64,000 nucleotides of DNA, from assembly GCF_002221595.1 (NCBI RefSeq), contig NZ_NHMP01000002.1, forward strand, positions 1-64,000. The letters run 5' to 3'. Below the pieces are notes generated by a model. The model was not told where the DNA came from. It did not search any database and saw nothing but the letters and a program-made list of their open reading frames with translations. A program made the position numbers and the translations under genes. Of the stretch, positions 33,740 to 44,523 are shown piece by piece. The DNA is from Turicimonas muris (GTDB taxonomy: Bacteria > Pseudomonadota > Gammaproteobacteria > Burkholderiales > Burkholderiaceae_F). The first letter of the stretch is position 1. Every line of letters begins with the position of its first letter.

Positions 33740-34375
33740 ATGAATATTGAATTAAAGGCCATGGCTTGTCTGCTTGTTTACCCGAGGCAGCAATTATTTG
33801 ATGAACTAGATGAGATTTCTTCGTCGATTCAAAATGCGCCTACTCTCAGTCACAAAGTCAAGGAGAATTTGTCCAAGATGATTGAACACTTTTCTTCATC
33901 ATCTTTAGCAAATCTGCAAGGAATTTATGTCTCCACTTTCGATTTAGGTAAGAAAGCCAGTTTGAATTTATTCGAACATCTGCATGGTGATTCCCGCGGC
34001 AGAGGTTCTGCAATGCTCAATCTTCTGCGCCTGTATGAGGATCATGGTCTGAAGTTTGAGAGCAATGAACTACCAGATTTCCTTCCGGCGATCTTGGAGT
34101 TCCTATCCGGACTCAAATTTGCTGATGCTCAGATGTGGCTTGCAAGTGCCGCGCCGCTTATTCAATCCATCAACCGTGAGCTTAAGCTAATGAATAGTCC
34201 GTGGCTTCCGGTCACCGAAGCTTTATTATCGATTGCCAATGTGAAACCGGAGAAAGCGGAGCTTACTCAAGACGATTTAACTCCGACTTTAGATGCCGAA
34301 TGGCAGGATCAGCCCGTTACCTTCGGAGGCGGTGCCAATCCGGTTGAACAGCTTATCCGATTTGTGAAAAAGTAA
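33740..34375 (+). CDS. narJ: Nitrate reductase assembly chaperone NarJ
   Basis: NarJ is the dedicated chaperone for Mo-cofactor insertion into NarG. The 211-residue protein has the family signature YVSTFDLGKKASLNLFEHLHGDSRGRGSAM and a following LYEDHGL. The early ACLLVYPRQ and later DLTPTLDAEWQDQPVTFGG segments fit as well. AGGGGG stands 7 bases before ATG. Instead of its usual place between narH and narI, it is a single gene divergent from narK and closed by a terminator. Confidence 0.92.
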   Translation: MNIELKAMACLLVYPRQQLFDELDEISSSIQNAPTLSHKVKENLSKMIEHFSSSSLANLQGIYVSTFDLGKKASLNLFEHLHGDSRGRGSAMLNLLRLYEDHGLKFESNELPDFLPAILEFLSGLKFADAQMWLASAAPLIQSINRELKLMNSPWLPVTEALLSIANVKPEKAELTQDDLTPTLDAEWQDQPVTFGGGANPVEQLIRFVKK

Positions 34376-34406
34376 GTTTTTTTCGAAGTATTCAAATAGA
34401 AAACAA

Positions 34407-34439
34407 GGAATCCAACTTTAGCTGTTGGAGTCCTTTTTT
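34407..34439 (+). terminator. Terminator after narJ
   Basis: GGAATCCAAC (34407-34416) pairs with GTTGGAGTCC (34424-34433), 9 of 10 positions, followed by six T. Confidence 0.85.
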
Positions 34440-34474
34440 ACTTTCTGAGGTTCAATTTTCCGATTTACCGGAAT

Positions 34475-34514
34475 AAAAATTGCCTGCCTTCATCATTCAA
34501 ACGGAGGCAGGCAA
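34475..34514 (-). terminator. Terminator of sstT
   Basis: On the minus strand TTGCCTGCCTCC pairs with AAGGCAGGCAA (34503-34514 with 34480-34490) and is followed by TTTTTATT. Confidence 0.85.
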
Positions 34515-34545
34515 AAGATTTCTTTATGAACTCGGAAGGTTCAGA

Positions 34546-35778
34546 TTAGTGAACACTTGCTTCTTTTCTTTGATTGTATTCGCAAGCCGCTGCTGTGAAC
34601 AGAACGTCTGTTGAAGAGTTCAAAGCAGTTTCTGCAGAATCTTGTAAGACACCGATTACGAAGCCCACGGCAACAACCTGCATAGCAACGTTCTGTTCAA
34701 TACCGAACAAGCCGCAAGCCAATGGAATAAGGAGAAGAGAACCGCCAGGTACACCGGATGCGCCGCACGCACAAACGGTAGCAACCAAGGAAAGCAAGAG
34801 AGCCGTTCCGATATCAACATGAACGTTCAGTGTAGTAGCGGCAGCCAAAGTCAAAACTGTAATAGTGACAGCAGCGCCGGCCATGTTAATAGTTGCGCCA
34901 ACCGGGATGGAAATAGCGTAAACGTTCTCGTCGAGGTTGAGTTTACGGCAAAGATTCATATTGACCGGAATGTTAGCGGCAGATGAACGGGTGAAGAAAG
35001 CTGTAACGCCGCTTTCCCTCAAGCACATCCAAACCAGAGGGAACGGGTTCTTGCGTGTATAGAACCAAACCAGCAACGGATTGACAACCAAAGCGATGAA
35101 GATCATGCAGCCAATCAAAACGACAAGCAGTTTGACGTAGCTGAGCATTCCTTCCAGGCCGGTTGTAGCAATAACGCCGGCAACCAAGCCAAACACACCG
35201 ATGGGAGCAAGTCGAATAACCAAACGCACGATGTACTCAACGCTGTTGCATAAGTCAGCAACGATTTTCTTGGTTTCATCGCTCGAATGACGAAGAGCAA
35301 TACCCAAGCTAACAGCCCAAGCCAAAATGCCGATGTAGTTTGCATTAGCCAAAGCTTTTACAGGATTATCCACAAGATTGAAAACCAAGTTTCGGATAAC
35401 TTCAGTAATTCCGCCAGGTGCAGTGACTGCGTCTTTAACTTCAACTAACGCAATCGGAGTCGGGAACATAAAGCTTGCAATAACAGCTACCAATGCAGCA
35501 GAAAAGGTTCCTAAGATATAGAGGAAGAGAACCGATTTAATTTTGCCGCCGCTTCCGGTGTCTTGATTAGCGATAGAAGCAGCAACCAGAACAAACACTA
35601 AAACCGGGGCTACTGCCTTCAAAGCAGAGACGAAGAAACTTCCTAAAACCTCCAAGGAGGAAGCACCGCTCGGCCATAAAACCCCAACAGCGATACCAAG
35701 GATCAAAGCCACAATAATCTGCTTGACCAGCGATCCCTGTCGAACCAGTGAAAGTAGAAAAGGTAGGGTACGTTTCAT
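34546..35778 (-). CDS. sstT: Serine/threonine:Na+ symporter SstT
   Basis: The 410-residue dicarboxylate/amino acid:cation symporter family member has the [20 protein letters not shown] start typical of SstT. It has the serine-rich reentrant loop [14 protein letters not shown] and the second hairpin region with [24 protein letters not shown]. It imports serine and threonine with sodium. AGGAATTG precedes ATG. It is a single gene with its own terminator and is divergent from the AAA+ gene. Confidence 0.92.
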
Positions 35779-35898
35779 TTATTCAATTCCTATTGTCAAA
35801 AGTTGTTACTAAATTTTAGATAGGAAACAGCGGCCAAATCGAAAAACTTAGAAGTAATTCCACTAGACAAAATTATTTTTTTATGTCCGATTAAGAAG

Positions 35899-35924
35899 TT
35901 TTACGTACCTTTATTTACGTAAAA
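35899..35924. promoter_or_regulatory. Inverted repeat in sstT/AAA spacer
   Basis: TTTTACGT (35899-35906) and ACGTAAAA (35917-35924) form a perfect 8-bp inverted repeat with a 10-base A/T-rich spacer. It lies in the divergent gap between sstT and the AAA+ gene, about 120 bases upstream of sstT. It looks like a dimeric repressor or activator site. The regulator is unknown. Confidence 0.45.
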
Positions 35925-36071
35925 GTAAAAATCTTCTTCTCAATTAAGACAGGATAAAAATTGAATAAATAGATTGGAGCCGAATTGATTCATAGAGATT
36001 CGAGCTGGCTAATGCGTCATAAATTAACGCTTTAAATATCACAATAGAACAAGATTAAAGGAGCACAAAAT

Positions 36072-38327
36072 ATGCCTAAAAATCTCAGTGTTGTTTTGAG
36101 CTTTACAGGTGCTTGTGAAGAAAGCATAGCTGGCGTTGACTATTGGATTACCAGGATTTTAGTGGAGCGAGGCGGCTGGTTCAAGTTGGAAAAAAACTAT
36201 GAAAGAAGAAGACCAGGTTCTTGGCGCAGAGAAGGATATGACGTTTTACCTGGCACTGAAGTTGGAACGGTCATTACCGATCTTCTTTCTGGGCTGGTTC
36301 AAGAGGTTATTGAATCGGGAAACTTTGAGGACGACGAAGAGCCTAAAACTTTTGAAGAGATCGAGAACGATCTTCCTGAACAAGTATCCCGTGCCTACAA
36401 AGAACTCAGAAAAAAACTAAGAAAAGGAGGTGAAGGTATTCCTCAGGAACTTTCAGACTTCTATCAATCGATATCAGACAAAGTCAAAACAGCCGGTCTC
36501 TTTCCAGAGAAAATGCAAAAGAATGCAGCAGTGCTGCAGGAATGTTTGTGTCTTTCAAGCTTTGAAACTGATATTTTATTTTTTCTTCTTCTTATTCAAG
36601 CCAATCCCCTGCTCAAGGAAGTCATCAATTTCTTTGACTTCACTAATAAAGGCATACATCTGCTGGGAGATATTATGGCGTGGCTTTTCGATGTCTCGAG
36701 TACTGAAGTCATGAAAGTCATTTCTCCGGAAGGAAAATTAGTTAACTGCGGCGTCCTGACACTCAATTGCTATTCTTCTACGGATGCGGAAGATCTGTTC
36801 GAAGTTTTCCACAACAATGATCTGAACCAATATATTTGGGGAACTGTTACCAAACAGAAGCTCTTTTCTCAATACCTGATTCAAACAGAATCGAGTATTT
36901 TATCTTTAAAAGACTTTAATTATCTTCCGGCTATTCCGGACATAATTCTTCCATTTCTAAAGCAGAATGCCTCAAATCCCAGGAAAGGTGTAAACATTCT
37001 CTTGTATGGACCACCTGGAACAGGAAAAACCGAGTTAAGTCGCTTATTAGCTAAAGAATCCGGACTAAAAACTTTTGAACCTTCTCTTTCTACATCCGGC
37101 TCTAAATCATCCGAGTCCACGAGCCGTTGGGAAAACTGGCAAGTTGCTTCTTCCCTGTTGAGTTCCTCCAGCGACTCTCTTCTTGCCGTCGATGAGGCTG
37201 CGGATCTCTTCAACGAAGGAATTCAGAAGTCTTACACCTTTCGTACTAACAAGGCCTTCATCAACAAGTGTCTGGAAGAAAACCAAACTCCAACAATATG
37301 GATGACAAATTCTATTGCAGGCCTCGATCCTGCGATGATTCGAAGATTTACTTTTGTTCTAGAGATAGCAAATCCTCCTTTGAGAGTCCTCAAGGACTTA
37401 ACACATCGGAAACTAGGGAAATTTCTCGACGAAAAAGAATTAACTCGACTTACAAAAAGCAACTTTCTTTCCCCGGGGATTATCGCCCAGGCAGCCGAAA
37501 TTTTAGAGATATTGTCTATGAGTTCATTGAAACTCTCTTCCAAAGTTGCCATGGAGATCATTACAGAAAAACTCAAAGCCCAAGGTCTTCCCAAGCTTCC
37601 TCCTATCGAAAATAATCAAAGCTACTTGTATGATCCGGATTTAACCAATTCCACGCTCGCTCTCAAAAAGATCGCAGAAGGCGTTAAACGTGCCGGGAGT
37701 GCAAAAATTTGCATTTATGGACCTCCCGGGACCGGGAAAACTGCCTATGCCAAGTGGCTGGCAAAATACCTTGAAAAACCACTCATCGTTCGAAAAGCTT
37801 CTGACTTATTGAACTGCTATCTTGGGGAAACGGAAAAGATTATTGCCCAAGCCTTTGAAGACGCACAGAGAGATGATGCCGTTCTGTTGCTTGACGAGAT
37901 CGATTCTTTCTTGAGAGACAGAACCTTAAGCAGTCACTCCTGGGAAGTCACACAAGTCAATGAGCTGCTGACACAAATTGAGAACTTCGAAGGGGTGTTT
38001 ATTGCAACCACCAATTTAATGGATCTTCTTGATCCGGCAGCTTTACGCCGCTTTGACCTCAAAACAAAATTCGACTTCTTAAAACTTGAACAAGCTAAAA
38101 AACTATTCAAAAAGTATTCTTCTCAACTTCGGCTTCAAGGTTCGTTAGCAGAAGTTTTGGCTGAACTTGAAAACCTCGAAAAACTAACCCCCGGTGATTT
38201 TGCCGCCGTCTATCGTCAATTCAAATTCAGAACCGAGAAAACGAAAAAAACTTTCTTAGAGGCCCTTAAAGACGAGGTACGAATCAAAGGAAACGGAGGC
38301 GCCGTCCGAAAAATTGGTTTTTCTTAA
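36072..38327 (+). CDS. Tandem AAA+ ATPase, unknown function
   Basis: The 751-residue protein has an N-terminal alpha-helical region of about 300 residues without a domain I recognise. Two AAA+ modules follow. Module 1 has Walker A GPPGTGKT at 313-320, Walker B AVDEA near 372-376 and an arginine-finger-like RRFTF. Module 2 has GPPGTGKT at 550-557, LLLDEID near 605-611 and RRFDLKTKF. Both look catalytically intact. The modules resemble Cdc48/FtsH-type rather than MoxR-type AAA+ domains. AAAGGAG precedes ATG. With the MerR and VIT-VWA genes downstream it forms an apparent three-gene locus. A remodelling machine paired with a VWA adaptor is a guess by analogy. Confidence 0.85.
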   Translation: MPKNLSVVLSFTGACEESIAGVDYWITRILVERGGWFKLEKNYERRRPGSWRREGYDVLPGTEVGTVITDLLSGLVQEVIESGNFEDDEEPKTFEEIENDLPEQVSRAYKELRKKLRKGGEGIPQELSDFYQSISDKVKTAGLFPEKMQKNAAVLQECLCLSSFETDILFFLLLIQANPLLKEVINFFDFTNKGIHLLGDIMAWLFDVSSTEVMKVISPEGKLVNCGVLTLNCYSSTDAEDLFEVFHNNDLNQYIWGTVTKQKLFSQYLIQTESSILSLKDFNYLPAIPDIILPFLKQNASNPRKGVNILLYGPPGTGKTELSRLLAKESGLKTFEPSLSTSGSKSSESTSRWENWQVASSLLSSSSDSLLAVDEAADLFNEGIQKSYTFRTNKAFINKCLEENQTPTIWMTNSIAGLDPAMIRRFTFVLEIANPPLRVLKDLTHRKLGKFLDEKELTRLTKSNFLSPGIIAQAAEILEILSMSSLKLSSKVAMEIITEKLKAQGLPKLPPIENNQSYLYDPDLTNSTLALKKIAEGVKRAGSAKICIYGPPGTGKTAYAKWLAKYLEKPLIVRKASDLLNCYLGETEKIIAQAFEDAQRDDAVLLLDEIDSFLRDRTLSSHSWEVTQVNELLTQIENFEGVFIATTNLMDLLDPAALRRFDLKTKFDFLKLEQAKKLFKKYSSQLRLQGSLAEVLAELENLEKLTPGDFAAVYRQFKFRTEKTKKTFLEALKDEVRIKGNGGAVRKIGFS

Positions 38328-38352
38328 CCCGACATAACGACTACATCTTTGA

Positions 38353-38392
38353 CCTCTTCGAACTCAACTTTCCGAAGAGGTCTTTGACTTTT
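38353..38392 (+). terminator. Possible terminator after AAA+ gene
   Basis: CCTCTTCG (38353-38360) pairs with CGAAGAGG (38373-38380), followed by TCTTTGACTTTTC. The T tract is broken, so some transcription may continue into the merR-type gene. Confidence 0.5.
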
Positions 38393-38497
38393 CAAACACA
38401 TCTCTCTCAAACCGAATTGAGAACTCCTTAAACATTCAAGAAGGCAGGCACTTTTTGAAGTTTTTGAACAGCAATTTATTTTTATGACACTTTTTAG

Positions 38498-38516
38498 TAC
38501 ACAATTAGTGTATAAT
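38498..38516 (+). promoter_or_regulatory. Palindrome and -10 of merR-type promoter
   Basis: TACAC-N5-GTGTA (38498-38512) runs into a perfect TATAAT (38511-38516), 23 bases upstream of the MerR-type start. MerR proteins bind dyads between -35 and -10, so this is the likely autoregulatory operator. I cannot assign the -35 box with certainty; GACACT at 38486-38491 would give the 19-base spacer typical of MerR promoters. Confidence 0.6.
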
Positions 38517-38539
38517 AAAATTCAATTAAGGAGGAGAGG

Positions 38540-38953
38540 ATGGAAAGCGACAAAAAATTTCGTCTAGAAGATCTCGCTGAACTCACTGGAATACCAAGAA
38601 GGACGATTCGGTTCTACATTCAAAAAGGGTATGTAGCACCCCCATTGGGTCAAAAACGTGGGTCCTACTACACCAATGAACATCTAGAAGAGCTGCTCAA
38701 GATCAAGAGACTATCTCATAAGAATGTTCGGTTAAAAGAAATCACTTCTTATGACGAAGATTCAATCGCACTCCCAGAACCGGAAGTCGGAACAATTTCT
38801 TGGTGTTCTCACATTTTTCTTGGTTCAGGAATGACCTTGGTTCTAGATAACCGAAAGGCAGAAATTAAGGCAGAAGCTCTTCCGGAGATGACAGAAAAAA
38901 TTATTGAACTTGTTCAAGAATACAAACAGAATAAAGGAAAGAACAATGAGTAA
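38540..38953 (+). CDS. MerR-type regulator
   Basis: The 137-residue protein begins with a MerR winged helix (FRLEDLAELTGIPRRTIRFYIQKGYVAPP ... YYTNEHLEELLKIKRL, residues 7-55). Its C-terminal part is short (GTISWCSHIFLGSGMTLVLDN), differs from the usual dimerising coiled coil and has no metal-binding cysteine cluster. AGGAGGAG precedes ATG. Its last 8 bases overlap the start of the VIT-VWA gene, so expression is coupled. It probably controls the palindromic promoter in front of itself; the inducing signal is unknown. Confidence 0.85.
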   Translation: MESDKKFRLEDLAELTGIPRRTIRFYIQKGYVAPPLGQKRGSYYTNEHLEELLKIKRLSHKNVRLKEITSYDEDSIALPEPEVGTISWCSHIFLGSGMTLVLDNRKAEIKAEALPEMTEKIIELVQEYKQNKGKNNE

Positions 38954-41369
38954 TCACGTAAAAGCCAACATTCCTTTGAAATCCATTCAATGGAAAGGTG
39001 AAGTGGACGGTCCTCTTTTCAGATATCAGTCTGTTCAAAACTATGAGAACAGCACGGACGATACCATTGAAATCAGCTACAGCTTTCCGCTGCCTTATGG
39101 CAAGAGTGTGATTACTTCTTTCTCGGCTGAAATAAACGGTGTTGTTCGTCATGCTTGCGCACTTCTAAAGAAGAAGGCAGAAGAGACTTATGAAGATGCC
39201 ATGGAATCCGGCGACTCTCCGGTAATGCTCAAGATCGAAGAGCAGGACTTTTGCACTGCTTCACTCGGCAATCTGAAGCCGGGTGAAAAGGCCAAAATAA
39301 CTGTCGAGTATATGCAGCTATTAGAGTTTCACGGCAAAAAAGTCCGCATCACTATCCCGATGGTATTGGATGAGCGCTATGCCGCCAGCGAAGAATCCTA
39401 TCCATCACCTCTCGCCGGAGTTGAAGCGAATATTTTTGCGGATTACGCCTGTTCCGGAGAGCTTCTAGTTAAGAAGCCGTTCGATGAGGGGACTGTCTAC
39501 TCTCCTTCTCATGCTATCAGATGTTCCTACTCCCAAAAAGGTCTAAAGGTTAGCGCCGTCGGCAAAGCAGACCGAGATTTTGTCGTTGACCTTGAAGTTG
39601 AGAACTCAGGTGTTCTGTGTCTCGCACAAGACGGCAAAGAGTGGGCTGCCTTGGCATCTTTTATTCCGCAGATTGCTCCTAAAAAAGCACCCTTAGATCT
39701 CTGTGTCTTACTTGATTGCTCCGGATCAATGGATGGAAGCCGAATTGAGTGGGCAAAAGAGACTCTGTCAAAAATTGTGGGAGGGTTAGATCCACAGGAT
39801 CAAGTTACCCTGTATCGTTTCGGATCTGATCTGAGACTGGAAAAAATTGCAGAAAATGCCATCATTCCGAAGTGCAACTCAAGAATTAAGGGATGGCTTA
39901 CAAGACCATGGGAAGAAGTCATTAATAACATTCAGGCCGATTTAGGAGGAACTGAGCTTGAAGGCGCCCTGAACGGATGTAGAGACCTGTGCCGAGGGGA
40001 AAGTGAGAATAGCGCCATTCTCTTAATTACCGACGGAGAAGTTTGGGACAATAAGAGCGTAAAAAAAGCTGCTAAAAAGACAGGCCGAAGAATCTTCACC
40101 TTAGGAATCGGCATGGCTCCTTACGGCAGTCTTTTGACTGAAATTTCTGAGTCCACAGGCGGAGTGTATGAGTCGGTTTACAGCTACTCTGACATCGAGG
40201 ATGCTGCAAACAGTGTAATTGTCCGCCTTCAGGCACCACTGTTGAAGTCAGTTAGCATTCACTGGCCTCAAGATGCAATTTGGACCTCTAGGGCCCCGAG
40301 GACTGCTTACTCGGCTGACTCTTGTTCATCAGCTGCTTTCCTGAGAGAGCCGATTGATGAATTAAGAATGTCTTTTTTAGAAGATGGACAGAAGCAAGAA
40401 ATAACCATAAAACGGTTAGACCAAGAATTTGGAAAAGCCCTTGTGCAACTTGTTGCTAATATGCGCATGGTTGCCAGCAAAGATGCCGAAGAACAAGAAT
40501 ATTTAGGTATTCGCTACAACTTGGCGGGGCCCCGCACCAACTTCCTCCTCGTAGTCGAACGTGCAGAAGAAGATAAAGTAGCAGACTTTGCAAAATTGAG
40601 TGTGGTGCCTCAAATGCCGGTTGTCGACAGGATGTGCAACGCTCCCTTTGGAGACCTGGAGGGACCGGGAGACATCTCCTATTGCATGAGCGAACCTATC
40701 AGAAAGTGCTCCAGAGCATCTCACCTAGGCCACTGGCATGCAAGCAGGGCCACACGCCGTTTAGATGATCCTTTGGAAATGATGATTGATGAGGATTTTG
40801 AGGAAGAGGATCCCGATGGAGTTAACAGTACGTTCTTCTCCGGTGAGACGGAAGAAATAGCAAAACAATTAATTGACACTAAACATCTAGTTGAATTGTG
40901 GGAAATTGCTCAGAAGAATGATGAGCTAAAGAAAAAGAATTGCAGAAAGCTACTTCAAAAACTGGAAGAACTGGCTGACTCAAGTGCCCTCGACTGGTAT
41001 CAGATAGGCAAACAGCTGTCTTTCCTTATAGAGCTTTATCACTTTATGGAAATTCCAGGGAAACAAACACTCAGTCTCTTCAACGAATTAAGAATAGCTG
41101 ATGAAAGATTGAATGAACGTTGGCCTGATCTCAGAGACTTTGCTAAGTATATGAGAAAAGAACATGCAAGCTGGCTGACTGAACAGTTCCGACTCTTTAA
41201 AACCGAACGGCATGTTCCAGAAGCCCTCGCAGACATTGTTGAGATACCAGCACTGCAAGAGTGGGACAATACGGACGAGAGAAACTTTGTCAATGCTATC
41301 TTGACAATGCTTTTCGTTGTGAACTTCGTTTTAGATTCCAACAACAAAGAGGAGCAAAAAGAACTCTAA
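38946..41369 (+). CDS. VIT and VWA domain protein
   Basis: I start at ATG 38946 (AAAGGAAAG upstream), inside the merR-type gene, giving 807 residues. The N-terminal part (about 1-140) is a VIT domain (NIPLKSIQWKGEVDG ... SFPLPYGKSVITSFSAEING ... LGNLKPGEKAKITVEYMQLL). A von Willebrand A domain starts near 248 with an intact MIDAS: D257-C-S-G-S, a threonine in LGGTELEGAL, and T362-D363-G. The last 350 residues are mostly helical and unassigned, with an acidic EDFEEEDPDG stretch. There is no signal peptide or membrane helix, unlike animal inter-alpha-trypsin proteins, so it is probably cytoplasmic. A strong terminator follows. Confidence 0.88.
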   Translation: MSNHVKANIPLKSIQWKGEVDGPLFRYQSVQNYENSTDDTIEISYSFPLPYGKSVITSFSAEINGVVRHACALLKKKAEETYEDAMESGDSPVMLKIEEQDFCTASLGNLKPGEKAKITVEYMQLLEFHGKKVRITIPMVLDERYAASEESYPSPLAGVEANIFADYACSGELLVKKPFDEGTVYSPSHAIRCSYSQKGLKVSAVGKADRDFVVDLEVENSGVLCLAQDGKEWAALASFIPQIAPKKAPLDLCVLLDCSGSMDGSRIEWAKETLSKIVGGLDPQDQVTLYRFGSDLRLEKIAENAIIPKCNSRIKGWLTRPWEEVINNIQADLGGTELEGALNGCRDLCRGESENSAILLITDGEVWDNKSVKKAAKKTGRRIFTLGIGMAPYGSLLTEISESTGGVYESVYSYSDIEDAANSVIVRLQAPLLKSVSIHWPQDAIWTSRAPRTAYSADSCSSAAFLREPIDELRMSFLEDGQKQEITIKRLDQEFGKALVQLVANMRMVASKDAEEQEYLGIRYNLAGPRTNFLLVVERAEEDKVADFAKLSVVPQMPVVDRMCNAPFGDLEGPGDISYCMSEPIRKCSRASHLGHWHASRATRRLDDPLEMMIDEDFEEEDPDGVNSTFFSGETEEIAKQLIDTKHLVELWEIAQKNDELKKKNCRKLLQKLEELADSSALDWYQIGKQLSFLIELYHFMEIPGKQTLSLFNELRIADERLNERWPDLRDFAKYMRKEHASWLTEQFRLFKTERHVPEALADIVEIPALQEWDNTDERNFVNAILTMLFVVNFVLDSNNKEEQKEL

Positions 41370-41458
41370 CGAGATATTGAGGAAGAAAAAAATTAAGCAA
41401 CGATCGGAACAGAGCAACTGATTCCGCTCAAGATTTCTTCCCAACCTTTACGAAGTAG

Positions 41459-41492
41459 CCTTGTCGGCATTTCGCCGACAAGGTCTTTTTTT
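41459..41492 (+). terminator. Terminator of the AAA-MerR-VWA locus
   Basis: CCTTGTCGGC (41459-41468) pairs perfectly with GCCGACAAGG (41474-41483), followed by TCTTTTTTT. Confidence 0.9.
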
Positions 41493-41601
41493 GAAGGACT
41501 TATTTACATTCTCATTGGCCTTGTCGCCATCTTAAGTGTTTTCCTCAGGTGTGGATAAAATTCATGTGTTAGATTTTCGGACTTATTCGTGCCGAGGACA
41601 T

Positions 41602-42825
41602 ATGAAGAGAAGTTTCCATCCGGGCCTGCCATTTATTTTGGTATGTGTTCTATTAGACATTTTAGGGATAGGCTTGATTATTCCCGTCCTTCCCCAACTT
41701 GTGGGTAAGCTCGCCGGCAACTCTGCCTCACAGGCCTGGTGGCTTGGTGCAATGCTCGTCAGCTACGGCCTGATGCAATTTTGCTTTGCTCCCACTCTCG
41801 GTGCTTTATCTGATAGATACGGTCGGCGCCCTCTGATGCTTTTAGGAATCTTCGGCCTAAGTATCATGTTTTTAGTTCCGGCCCTGAGTATGTCTTTGCC
41901 AGTAATTTTGGCCTCGCGCTTTGTAGGAGGAATGTTCTCGGCCAACGTAGCGGTAGCTCAGGCTTATATCGCCGACATAACGGCTAAAGAAAAAAGAGCG
42001 GCAGCCTTCGGCATGCTCGGCGCGTGTTTCGGCATCGGTTTTATCTTGGGGCCTCTTATCGGCGGAATCCTCGGAGAACACGATTTGCGGTATCCGTTTT
42101 TCCTGGCCGCCGCCCTATCAGGACTTAACTTCTTATACGGCTTATTTGTTCTTCCTGAATCCTTAAGTCTTAGTCTTCGTACTCCCTTCTCTCTGAGAAG
42201 ATGCAATCCCCTCAGCACTCTTGTTAATTTGTCCAGGCTGAAGAAAATCGGTCTACTCATCGCAGTTATCGCCGTTTCTTCCTTCGCCCAGTCCATGCTT
42301 CACTCTACTTGGACTCTTTATACCGATTACCGCTACGGGTGGACTCCATTTGACATCGGCATTTCTTTAGTTTGTATCGGTGCCGTCAGCGTTGTAATGC
42401 AAGGATTCCTGATGAGAGTGTTCATCCGCAGGATCGGTGAAAAGAAAGTAGTCCTTTGCGGGCTGCTAACCGGCGCATTAGCTTATTTAGGTTTTGGCCT
42501 GGTTACTCAAGGTTCTTGGCTCTACGTCATTATCTTCTTAAATTTTATGTCTGTTGCCGTCCCTCCGACACTAAACGGCATGGTCTCAGAAAATATCAGT
42601 GCCAACGACCAAGGTATCAGCCTCGGAGCTATTTCTTCTCTGAACAGTCTTATCGGTGTTATCGCTCCACTTATCGGAACCCCTCTTCTTGTACATACTG
42701 TCCACCAGGATCCTCAATCCATGCTGTCAGGTCTTGTTTATTTCATTTGTGCCGGACTTTTGTTAATGGCCTTCTTTATCGCCCTTGTTCAGTTCCGCTC
42801 ATTAGGAAGCAGTCAAAAAGTTTAG
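41602..42825 (+). CDS. TetA-like MFS efflux transporter
   Basis: I start at MKRSFHPGLPF (41602, with GAGGACAT upstream), giving 407 residues; the longer frame from 41536 adds a non-hydrophobic stretch. About 12 membrane helices are visible. Motif A is GALSDRYGRRPLML and the proton-antiporter motif C region is GFILGPLIGGILGE. The first helix, LLDILGIGLIIPVLPQL, is typical of TetA-class drug:H+ antiporters. Substrate is unknown; tetracycline export cannot be inferred from these motifs alone. It has no regulator next to it. Confidence 0.82.
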   Translation: MKRSFHPGLPFILVCVLLDILGIGLIIPVLPQLVGKLAGNSASQAWWLGAMLVSYGLMQFCFAPTLGALSDRYGRRPLMLLGIFGLSIMFLVPALSMSLPVILASRFVGGMFSANVAVAQAYIADITAKEKRAAAFGMLGACFGIGFILGPLIGGILGEHDLRYPFFLAAALSGLNFLYGLFVLPESLSLSLRTPFSLRRCNPLSTLVNLSRLKKIGLLIAVIAVSSFAQSMLHSTWTLYTDYRYGWTPFDIGISLVCIGAVSVVMQGFLMRVFIRRIGEKKVVLCGLLTGALAYLGFGLVTQGSWLYVIIFLNFMSVAVPPTLNGMVSENISANDQGISLGAISSLNSLIGVIAPLIGTPLLVHTVHQDPQSMLSGLVYFICAGLLLMAFFIALVQFRSLGSSQKV

Positions 42826-43015
42826 GCGCAGGCTGTCTAGCTACGCTTCATAACCGAGACGTTGAAATCAAAAGCCTCAATCCACCTTCTGTACGCTAGG
42901 CTCACTGAAACCAGTTTGAGGAATTAAGGCTATTTTTGAGTTATTCAATACCCCAAAAACTTTTCTCCTCTTTTTTGATGATTAGACTGACAAAACAATT
43001 TGTCAGGAGAAAAAA

Positions 43016-43942
43016 ATGAGAAAAATCGGTGTTATCGGCCTTGGACACGTTGGATCAACTGTCGCCTACACACTAGTAACCAAGGGTATCGCAGATGAGC
43101 TAGTCCTTATCGACAACAACGATGCCAAATGCACTGCTGAGTTCTATGACTATATGGACTCTTTGCCAAGACTCGATACCAGCACGAAGATACTGAAACA
43201 GAATTATAGCGACCTTGCCGATGCTGATGTTATCGTTACTTCATTCGGCGACATTAAAGCTCTTGCGCAAGGCGGCGATAGATTCTTGGAGTATGAATTC
43301 AACTGCAAGCAAGCTAAGGAAGTCGGAATTAAATTGCATGAAGTTGGCTTTAAAGGTGTACTGATTAATATTTCCAATCCCTGCGATGTCATTACAGGAT
43401 TGCTTCGGTACTATACGGGTTTAAATCGTCGGCAAGTGTTCGGCACAGGCACCTTCTTGGATACTGCAAGAATGCAGAGAGCTGTTGGAATGGCTCTTAA
43501 TCAGAATCCGCATAACATTTCCGGCTACGTTCTCGGAGAGCACGGTGAATCTCAATTTACCGCTTGGTCGACAGTCTGCGTTCAAGGCAAACCAATTGAA
43601 GAGCTCGCTGAAGAAGTCGGACTGAACCTTGGTGAACTCGACAACGCAGCCCGCGGAGGCGGCTGGCTCGTATTTAACGGTAAGAAGTACACTTGTTATG
43701 CGATTGCAACATGTGCCGTTAAGCTTGTTCAGGCAGTATTTTCAGATTCTCGCCTAGTCTGCCCCGCTTCGGTATACGTTGATGAATTCAAATGCTATGT
43801 CGGTTATCCTGCAATCATCACTAAATCCGGCGCGGAAATGGCCATGCCTTTGCCGCTTAGCGCAGAAGAAAAAGAAAAGCTCACTGCGTCAGCCAAGATG
43901 ATTAGAACCAAAACGGAAGAAGGAAAAGGTCGACAGCGTTAA
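43016..43942 (+). CDS. L-2-hydroxyisocaproate dehydrogenase-like
   Basis: The 308-residue protein belongs to the L-lactate/malate dehydrogenase family. It has an N-terminal Rossmann motif GVIGLGHVGSTVAY, NAD-selective acid in LVLIDNND, the NISNPCDVIT loop, GTGTFLDTARMQRAVG and the catalytic histidine in LGEHGESQF. The TSFGDIKAL loop resembles Lactobacillus L-2-hydroxyisocaproate dehydrogenase more than classical lactate dehydrogenase. It probably reduces branched 2-oxoacids with NADH. AGGAGA precedes ATG. Confidence 0.82.
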   Translation: MRKIGVIGLGHVGSTVAYTLVTKGIADELVLIDNNDAKCTAEFYDYMDSLPRLDTSTKILKQNYSDLADADVIVTSFGDIKALAQGGDRFLEYEFNCKQAKEVGIKLHEVGFKGVLINISNPCDVITGLLRYYTGLNRRQVFGTGTFLDTARMQRAVGMALNQNPHNISGYVLGEHGESQFTAWSTVCVQGKPIEELAEEVGLNLGELDNAARGGGWLVFNGKKYTCYAIATCAVKLVQAVFSDSRLVCPASVYVDEFKCYVGYPAIITKSGAEMAMPLPLSAEEKEKLTASAKMIRTKTEEGKGRQR

Positions 43943-43983
43943 AATTACCAGCATCACTGCTTTTAACAACTCCGGACGGCCTT

Positions 43984-44523
43984 ATGAAAACCTACCTGAA
44001 AGCACTTCTTTTTACACTACCAATTTGTCTAGCCGGCTGTTCTACGATTGGAGACAATCTCAGTAGCCTAATACCAGGGACCGGAGGTGTGCCTTCAAAG
44101 CTCACACCGCCAACAGGAAAACCTATTCTTACCCTGCAGGCAAAGGGCGTCCAGGTTTTCAGATGTACAGTGGACTCAAAGGGCCCTTATTACCGTTTCG
44201 AGCGTCCGGATGCCGCTTTGTATGAAGGCTCGGAAAAAGTCGGTACTTTGTCTGGTCCGATGTCTGCTATTTCTTACAAGGACGGCTCTTCGATTATCTC
44301 AACACGAGTATCCGCTTGGGCTAATCCGTCTGATTCTAAAAAAGATCTAGTTTTAGCCCTTCTTTCAGCTGTCCCGAATGACAAGCCTGGAGCGCTGGAA
44401 GGCGTCAGGTATATTCAAAGGTTGGACACAAAGGGAGGCATTCCACAGTCAAACTGTTCCCAAACAGAAGCGGGAAAACTTCTAAAGGTTCCGTTTACGG
44501 CCGAATTCGTATTTTGGAAGTGA
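43984..44523 (+). CDS. DUF3455-like lipoprotein
   Basis: The 179-residue protein has a signal peptide with lipobox LAGC (Cys19). The rest fits the DUF3455 pattern: VQVFRCTVD, PDAALYEGSEKVGTLSGP, a VRYIQRLDTKGGIPQSNC segment and FTAEFVFWK at the end. Function of the family is unknown; it is presumably anchored to the outer or inner membrane. It follows the dehydrogenase gene by 41 bases and is closed by a strong terminator. Confidence 0.78.
   Translation: MKTYLKALLFTLPICLAGCSTIGDNLSSLIPGTGGVPSKLTPPTGKPILTLQAKGVQVFRCTVDSKGPYYRFERPDAALYEGSEKVGTLSGPMSAISYKDGSSIISTRVSAWANPSDSKKDLVLALLSAVPNDKPGALEGVRYIQRLDTKGGIPQSNCSQTEAGKLLKVPFTAEFVFWK

What the first reader, a model, noticed from the sequence alone, without database searches (positions are those of the whole stretch)
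36072..41369. Uncharacterised AAA+ / MerR / VIT-VWA three-gene locus
A tandem AAA+ ATPase with two intact Walker motifs, a small MerR-type regulator and a soluble VIT-VWA protein with an intact MIDAS lie together, bounded by a divergent gene and a strong terminator. AAA+ plus VWA pairs are known as metal-cofactor inserters and chaperones (MoxR, CbbQ/CbbO, RavA-ViaA), but this AAA+ is not MoxR-like, the VWA carries a VIT domain, and a regulator is embedded. No enzyme is next to it to be remodelled. It may be a general chaperone or stress or defence machine. This is the best candidate here for an undescribed system.
Basis: partly seen in the sequence, partly recalled or inferred. Interest (0 to 1): 0.72.

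Follow-up and report, generated by a model that had tools for sequence, protein, structure and literature searches.

The report
Two-gene MerR/VIT-VWA module beside AAA+ ATPase
Two separable pieces of accessory bacterial DNA sit side by side here: a lone molecular-machine gene, and a widespread, apparently undescribed pair made of a probable self-controlling switch protein and a metal-binding adhesion-type protein that often lies near defence-type regulators.

Summary
The three genes are real and intact, but they are not a conserved three-gene system. In 79 relatives' loci from public genomes the small MerR gene lies directly before the VIT-VWA gene for 69 of 80 VWA genes, whereas the AAA+ gene lies within the locus (flanks up to 10 kb, often less) in only 1 of 79. 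Conversely, 0 of 32 other AAA+ loci hold the VWA or MerR. A terminator-like hairpin separates AAA+ from merR. merR has its own promoter with a dyad (ACA-N7-TGT) found upstream of merR in 38 of 66 readable loci against 3.5 expected, so merR-vwa is very probably a self-regulated operon. The AAA+ belongs to a tandem, CDC48/Rix7-like family whose recurrent neighbour is a WYL regulator (9 of 33 loci), sometimes with RtcB, ADP-ribosylglycohydrolase or SIR2 genes. The VWA protein models as a bacterial ITIH/PARP4-like VIT-VWA. All three genes sit, like one insertion, between two genes that are direct neighbours without them in two relatives. WYL genes are enriched near merR-vwa (11 of 79 loci, 0.5 expected). 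Most likely: two accessory stress/defence-type cassettes at one site. My searches found no paper on the pair; its function is untested.

The parts
36072..38327 (+). Tandem AAA+ ATPase (751 aa, helical N-terminal part, two AAA domains), CDC48/Rix7/IetA-like; probably its own transcription unit
   Evidence: neighbour counts
38351..38382 (+). Terminator-like hairpin between the AAA+ gene and merR (10-bp stem, 12-base loop, then TTTGACTTTT)
   Evidence: -17.3 kcal/mol against a shuffled mean of -6.95, z -5.2
38498..38516 (+). Putative MerR operator and promoter: dyad TACAC-N5-GTGTA running into the -10 box TATAAT
   Evidence: ACA-N7-TGT upstream of merR in 38 of 66 loci, 3.5 expected (sd 1.9, highest of 100 shuffles 8); only copy between 35700 and the merR start
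38540..38953 (+). MerR-type regulator, probably an autorepressor; about 50-residue C-terminal sensor part with no conserved Cys
38946..41369 (+). VIT-VWA protein (807 aa), intact MIDAS, ITIH-like VIT/VWA core, variable helical C-terminus; overlaps the merR stop (ATGAGTAA)
41458..41484 (+). Strong intrinsic terminator ending the merR-vwa unit
   Evidence: z -6.5

Best explanation
The locus is an accessory block of about 5.6 kb holding two separable units. Unit 1 is a lone tandem AAA+ ATPase of a CDC48/Rix7-like family, expected to form a two-tiered ring that pulls proteins apart; elsewhere its recurrent neighbour is a WYL regulator (function inferred). Unit 2 is an operon of a MerR-type regulator and a VIT-VWA protein. 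The MerR dimer binds the ACA-N7-TGT dyad that overlaps the promoter of its own operon and keeps it low (site shown by conservation; binding and repression inferred from its place in the promoter). A cytoplasmic signal, probably not a thiol-bound metal, acts on the C-terminal part and releases it (inferred). The VIT-VWA protein then accumulates and uses its Mg-dependent MIDAS face to grip a partner, as VWA proteins of the ITIH/PARP4 kind are thought to do (recalled); its variable helical tail may set the target (inferred). The most likely setting is a stress or anti-phage response (inferred from neighbourhoods).
For: MerR directly before VWA for 69 of 80 VWA genes in 79 loci; of the other 11, four start within 211 bases of a contig end. 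AAA+ in 1 of 79 of these loci, and VWA/MerR in 0 of 32 AAA+ loci. Dyad in 38 of 66 readable upstream regions, 3.5 expected. Internal terminator-like hairpin. The AAA+ genes near a VWA (window, L129, L192) lie on three separate tree branches. In G006 and G032 the flanking symporter and MFS genes are 117 and 81 bases apart with none of the three genes between. WYL genes in 11 of 79 merR-vwa loci, all 11 confirmed by Pfam, against 0.53 expected from 77 WYL in 174.2 Mb of 49 of these genomes. WYL near AAA+ in 9 of 33 loci (three of the nine by plasmid annotation), and within 1 kb in 4, within 4 kb in 6, of 14 AAA+-bearing genomes. VWA model (pLDDT 76.6) best matches ITIH1 (E 1e-31).
Against: All three genes lie in one block, and G298 has the AAA+ about 1.1 kb from merR-vwa, divergent, so a loose link remains possible. 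No expression or binding data exist. Loci are of unequal length: only 31 of 79 have at least 5 kb on both sides, so absence of AAA+ is weaker evidence at the rest. Six VWA genes have no detectable MerR although the contig continues, and a seventh (L219) has it at the other end. The dyad is absent as an exact match from 28 of 66 loci. Immediate neighbours of merR-vwa are otherwise very mixed (92 Pfam families among 137 scanned), so the defence setting rests mainly on WYL, and no WYL gene is next to the block in the window.
Confidence: 0.72

Rival explanations
1. The three genes are one undescribed system in which the AAA+ ring remodels a client chosen by the VIT-VWA protein, like RavA-ViaA or MoxR-VWA, under MerR control.
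For: All three lie in one block absent from the same site in relatives; AAA+ also lies near merR-vwa in G298 (L129, about 1.1 kb) and L192 (about 7 kb). Four same-family genomes hold both.
Against: AAA+ in 1 of 79 loci; 0 of 32 AAA+ loci have VWA or MerR; in G001, G036 and G027 the two lie on different contigs. Internal terminator-like hairpin and separate conserved promoter dyad. The near-VWA AAA+ genes are on separate branches.
Confidence: 0.1
2. merR-vwa is an ordinary stress-response or metabolic pair with no role in phage defence; its closeness to WYL genes reflects shared variable regions only.
For: Immediate neighbours include many housekeeping families, e.g. RelA/SpoT in 3 and UPF0004/radical SAM in 3 of 137, so it often sits at plain chromosomal sites.
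Against: WYL in 11 of 79 loci against 0.53 expected; MTase, AbiLi, DUF499, mad2-like, JetD and integrase hits among neighbours, though mostly single cases and without a matched control.
Confidence: 0.4
3. The VIT-VWA protein is a cytoplasmic variant of the marine proteobacterial sortase target protein (TIGR03788).
For: TIGR03788 is its best NCBIfam match, 139.9 bits; several weaker phylum-wide VWA matches have a small gene directly after them, consistent with that kind (the small genes were not scanned).
Against: Far below the 551.65-bit cut-off; the next gene is an MFS transporter; paired with MerR instead.
Confidence: 0.03

Closest known systems
ITIH heavy chain / PARP4 VIT-VWA proteins (6fpy, 11jf)
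   Same: VIT and VWA domains in the same order, best solved match of the model and best sequence match (PARP4), MIDAS kept
   Different: Bacterial, paired with a MerR gene, variable helical tail; no PARP domain matched in Pfam
RavA-ViaA, MoxR-VWA and CbbQ/CbbO pairs (recalled)
   Same: AAA+ and VWA genes near each other in this genome
   Different: AAA+ is not MoxR-type, VWA carries a VIT domain, adjacency not conserved
CDC48 / Rix7 / anti-phage IetA AAA+ ATPases
   Same: AAA domains of the same kind; closest solved, modelled and family relatives
   Different: Below the NCBIfam cut-offs for IetA (135 of 510 bits) and CDC48 (82 of 803); no subtilase partner beside it
WYL-regulated defence loci (BrxR/CapW type; PMC9122601, abstract and passages seen)
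   Same: WYL regulator recurs beside this AAA+ family and near merR-vwa
   Different: In the window itself no WYL gene is adjacent (its genome has one, on another contig); regulator of the pair is MerR-type
MADS defence system (mad1, mad2, mad8)
   Same: merR product hits mad1 weakly (33 bits); one merR-vwa neighbour elsewhere hits mad2
   Different: The mad1 match covers only the HTH part (residues 4-54); no methyltransferase in the window block

Membership tests
MoxR/RavA-ViaA-type AAA+/VWA pair | AAA+ partner of the MoxR clade | tested here: not met
   bpMoxR 21 bits, cut-off 27; best relatives IetA, CDC48, Rix7
MoxR/RavA-ViaA-type AAA+/VWA pair | AAA+ and VWA genes conserved side by side | tested here: not met
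   1 of 79 VWA loci; 0 of 32 AAA+ loci
Iet anti-phage system | AAA+ above the IetA cut-off | tested here: not met
   135.1 bits, cut-off 510; PADLOC IetA 149.6 bits, no cut-off given
Iet anti-phage system | adjacent subtilase IetS (recalled) | tested here: not met
   The next genes are MerR and VIT-VWA, flanked by SDF and MFS transporters; no subtilase match
CDC48/Rix7-like tandem AAA+ | two intact AAA domains with Walker A and B | tested here: met
   model confidence moderate (pLDDT 71.7)
MerR family | MerR DNA-binding domain | tested here: met
   MerR_1 E 2.8e-15
MerR family | operator dyad in the regulated promoter | tested here: met
   dyad in 38 of 66 loci, 3.5 expected; binding itself not tested
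Metal-sensing MerR (CueR, ZntR, CadR) | C-terminal Cys ligands and family score | tested here: not met
   position 89 is Cys in 4 of 70 (Arg 30, Trp 18), although His91 is kept in 56 of 70; scores far below cut-offs
VIT-VWA proteins (ITIH/PARP4 kind) | VIT domain followed by VWA with complete MIDAS | tested here: met
   five MIDAS residues in 56 of 56
Marine sortase target protein TIGR03788 | score above cut-off and sortase partner | tested here: not met
   139.9 of 551.65 bits; downstream gene is MFS_1
Anti-phage defence system | protects from phage | not testable with these tools
   no PADLOC match for P0003 at E up to 1; neighbourhood evidence only

The most novel reading that the evidence does not exclude
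merR-vwa is an undescribed, self-regulated, horizontally moving two-gene immune or stress module in which a MerR sensor releases a cytoplasmic ITIH/PARP4-like VIT-VWA protein that binds an infection- or damage-related target. The WYL-linked tandem AAA+ is a second, independently moving unit of the same stress network (RNA repair, ADP-ribose), and the window lineage has collected both at one site.
Probability: 0.25. Interest if true: 0.7.

Novelty: new variant of a known kind. Interest (0 to 1): 0.42.

Why it matters
It replaces a one-genome coincidence with a testable unit: a two-gene MerR/VIT-VWA operon found mostly in Burkholderiales and, by record titles, in a few other groups (Desulfovibrio, Campylobacter kin, Planctomycetes), with a conserved promoter dyad, whose effector is a bacterial cousin of the animal ITIH and vault PARP4 proteins. 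The papers my searches reached assign no function to such bacterial proteins. The dyad gives a direct way to find the inducing signal. Separately, the tandem AAA+ family's repeated pairing with WYL regulators, and at times RtcB or ADP-ribose genes, is a lead to another stress or defence system.

Tried and rejected
Rejected: (1) the conserved three-gene system, on adjacency counts, the hairpin and the tree. (2) Metal-sensing MerR: Cys at position 89 in only 4 of 70. (3) Marine sortase target: below cut-off. (4) A shared operator for the AAA+ gene: no ACA-N7-TGT between 35700 and its start. (5) Direct repeats at the edges of the block: nothing longer than 8 bases between 35701-36072 and 41370-41700, so no sign of a specific integrase. 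(6) Presence on viruses: 6 viral contigs for the AAA+ and 8 for the VWA, only one of these 8 strong, so neither looks like a phage gene first.

Led nowhere: a whole-genome search for the dyad with a one-base spacer before the -10 gave 36 one-mismatch hits against 28 for the reversed control, so no regulon can be claimed; that pattern also does not fit the window's own site, which lacks the spacer. The immediate-neighbour scan had no matched control. The list of 137 proteins was changed by hand before it was given: two WYL genes (L181, L201) were put in and two other proteins (from L170, L219) left out, so the WYL counts of 3 are not used as evidence.

Corrections made on checking: the first dyad count (38 of 70) included four upstream regions miscut at contig starts (L175, L189, L190, L193); recounted without them it is 38 of 66, 3.5 expected. 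The dyad was noticed by eye and tested on the same sequences, so its excess is not a blind test; other spacings gave at most 11 of 66 (spacing 2). Of the 38, 22 have a close -10-like match directly after the dyad and 30 a looser one.

Co-occurrence: AAA+ in 14 of 49 genomes with merR-vwa against 42 of 398 across the phylum. The taxonomic mix differs and the number of same-order genomes was not shown in full, so I make no claim.

Sampling: for I gave 50 of the 79 loci (49 genomes), and chose them so that all 11 WYL-bearing loci were among them; this can only raise the background, and the enrichment is stated over all 79. A looser clustering gave 12 of 79. For the VWA alignment and model I gave proteins of 55 of the 79 loci plus the window's. 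For AAA+ neighbours I used 33 loci chosen from the hits, one of them (L129) taken because it also holds the VWA. The four relatives tested for the empty site were chosen by me.

Full report
What is there. The window holds three intact genes on the plus strand: a 751-residue tandem AAA+ ATPase (36072-38327), a 137-residue MerR-type regulator (38540-38953) and a VIT-VWA protein ending at 41369. The VWA gene most likely starts at the ATG at 38946, which overlaps the merR stop codon (ATGAGTAA), so the last two genes are probably translationally coupled. Pfam finds AAA (two stretches), MerR_1, and VIT plus VWA. The five MIDAS residues are present in 56 of 56 aligned sequences. The window lies in a genome of the same genus as G001. 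The VWA-bearing contig of G001 (contig 68, 50084 bases) matches in length and content the public record behind L155, titled uncultured Turicimonas, so the host is probably Turicimonas (inference).

Two transcription units. Between AAA+ and merR lie 212 bases. They hold a hairpin with a 10-base-pair stem and 12-base loop followed by a T-rich tail (-17.3 kcal/mol, z -5.2). The consensus terminator scan did not list it; that scan allows loops of 3-8. Then comes a promoter-like stretch with the dyad TACAC-AATTA-GTGTA running into TATAAT. The core, ACA-N7-TGT, occurs upstream of merR in 38 of 66 loci with a readable upstream region, against 3.5 expected from dinucleotide shuffles (sd 1.9, highest of 100 shuffles 8). 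Spacings 2 to 12 other than 7 gave at most 11. In 22 of the 38 a close -10-like match follows directly, in 30 a looser one. The dyad was noticed by eye and tested on the same sequences, so this is not a blind test, and 28 of 66 loci lack an exact match. A first count (38 of 70) included four miscut regions. The same core is found in L130 and, without a -10 box, in L036. The close relative L155 shows a degenerate form, and none was printed for L034, L039, L043 or L129. No such dyad lies between 35700 and the AAA+ start.

The pair is conserved, the trio is not. Among 37 genomes of the same family (the window's included), VWA relatives with E up to 1.5e-30 occur in 7 and long AAA+ relatives (34-42% identity) in 9. 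Of six VWA loci other than the window's, MerR lies directly before VWA in four (G001, G036, G027, G032; in G032 the VWA gene is split over two contigs). In one (G005) the contig is cut, and in one (G026) none was found. Four genomes hold both AAA+ and VWA; only the window's has them adjacent. A scan of public genomes kept the best 79 loci of 405 relatives. MerR directly precedes 69 of 80 VWA genes. The AAA+ occurs in 1 of 79 loci, L192, about 7 kb away. Only 31 of the 79 loci have 5 kb or more on both sides, and 46 have 2.5 kb or more. The reverse test agrees: 0 of 32 AAA+ loci hold VWA or MerR. One further case exists, G298 (L129), with AAA+ about 1.1 kb from merR-vwa and divergent; it was fetched because both searches hit it, so it is left out of the 32. 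On a tree of 39 AAA+ proteins the three members near a VWA fall on three separate branches; I did not look at support values.

How it came here. In G006 and G032 the genes homologous to the two that flank the block (SDF symporter and MFS transporter) are divergent neighbours, 117 and 81 bases apart between frames, with nothing between. In G001 the MFS gene and a lipoprotein-like gene lie on the other side in turned orientation, and no AAA+, MerR or VWA is beside the symporter. G021 has another gene beside the symporter and no MFS relative at E 1e-60. So none of these four relatives has the block at this site, and a gain of about 5.6 kb in the window's lineage, together or in steps, is the simplest reading; loss in the others is not excluded. 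No long direct repeats mark the edges, and G+C is 39-47% in the block against 42-50% around it.

What the neighbours say. The family found at more than 12 of 79 merR-vwa loci is MerR itself (a second, larger cluster is antisense reading frames of merR); next comes a WYL regulator. WYL genes matched by one WYL query lie in 11 of 79 loci, and all 11 are confirmed by Pfam. The 49 genomes searched hold 77 WYL domains in 174.2 Mb, which predicts 0.53 in the 1.20 Mb of all 79 loci. Other clusters in up to 9 loci are transporter and housekeeping genes shared by related genomes. Near the AAA+ family WYL lies in 9 of 33 loci, in 5 of them within about 150 bases (six confirmed by Pfam, three by plasmid annotation). 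RtcB lies in 4 of 33, ADP-ribosylglycohydrolase in 4, SIR2 in 3 and DUF2779 in 3 (labels by Pfam, or plasmid annotation). Independently, 4 of 14 AAA+-bearing genomes have a WYL domain within 1 kb and 6 of 14 within 4 kb. WYL regulators are known to co-localise with phage-defence systems (PMC9122601, abstract and passages; PMC4012209, passages). Immediate neighbours of merR-vwa include single methyltransferases, AbiLi, DUF499 and a mad2-like protein, three integrases, and in the closest relative a JetD fragment. These have no matched control, only the 25 commonest families were shown, and most neighbours are ordinary genes.

What the proteins look like. The VWA model (pLDDT 76.6) is confident over VIT, VWA and a following part up to about residue 560, and poor beyond. 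Its best solved match is ITIH heavy chain 1 (E 1.3e-31, query TM 0.43); by sequence the best is PARP4. The AAA+ model (8 sequences, pLDDT 71.7, pTM 0.55) best matches Rix7 and Cdc48, and sequence gives VCP-like ATPases. Its first 100 residues are not modelled reliably.

Most likely working. MerR binds the dyad in its own promoter and represses; a signal releases it; VIT-VWA accumulates and grips a partner through its MIDAS. Shown here: gene pairing, dyad conservation, intact MIDAS, fold similarity. Inferred: binding, repression rather than activation, the signal, the partner, and the stress or defence purpose. The AAA+ is a separate unfoldase-type machine; its purpose is inferred only from family.

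Novelty. Searches for VIT with VWA and bacteria, VIT/VWA with MerR and AAA, MoxR/vWA conflict systems, RtcB/WYL/AAA, and VWA with MerR-family regulators listed no paper whose title or abstract start describes this pair or the AAA+/WYL/RtcB neighbourhood. I saw listings only, apart from passages of three papers: the two named above and a butanol transcriptome study (PMC11728337), in which the terms are unrelated table rows. The library lacks most subscription papers, so prior description cannot be excluded. The plasmid records already name the protein VIT and VWA domain-containing protein beside a MerR or helix-turn-helix gene, so the components are annotated while the function is not.

Noticed in passing
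L041, L037, L111, L112, L115, L122, L151, L152, L153; G498, G505, G506, G517: The tandem AAA+ family is repeatedly paired with a WYL regulator, sometimes with DUF2779, RtcB, SIR2 or ADP-ribosylglycohydrolase genes; this looks like a system of its own.
   Followed up: partly
L155:8708-9154 (the same contig as L034): Beside merR-vwa in the closest relative lies a fragment of Wadjet JetD (Pfam JetD_C E 1e-31, PADLOC JetD E 1e-38).
   Followed up: partly
L201: One Polynucleobacter contig carries two complete merR-vwa pairs about 9 kb apart with two WYL genes between them, as if duplicated or collected in an island.
   Followed up: no
L156, L158, L170, L173, L179, L195: VIT-VWA genes without a detectable MerR partner although the contig continues; L179 has a different small gene in its place.
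   Followed up: no
L123, L124, L125, L127: A branch of the AAA+ family has two recurrent small neighbouring genes (about 136 and 153 residues) of unknown kind on the same strand.
   Followed up: no
L234-L239: Six IMG/VR contigs, three of them over 340 kb, encode AAA+ relatives; some may be huge phages or mis-sorted host DNA.
   Followed up: no
L248, L252 (G001 contig 52) against window 33740-44523: The MFS and lipoprotein-like genes beside the site are turned round in the same-genus genome and lie next to each other there, without the dehydrogenase gene that separates them in the window (43016), so the site seems rearrangement-prone.
   Followed up: partly
L131, L132, L133, L138, L144-L148: Weaker phylum-wide VWA hits are VIT-VWA genes followed at once by a small gene (184-228 residues) consistent with the marine sortase pair, a different family from the window's.
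   Followed up: partly
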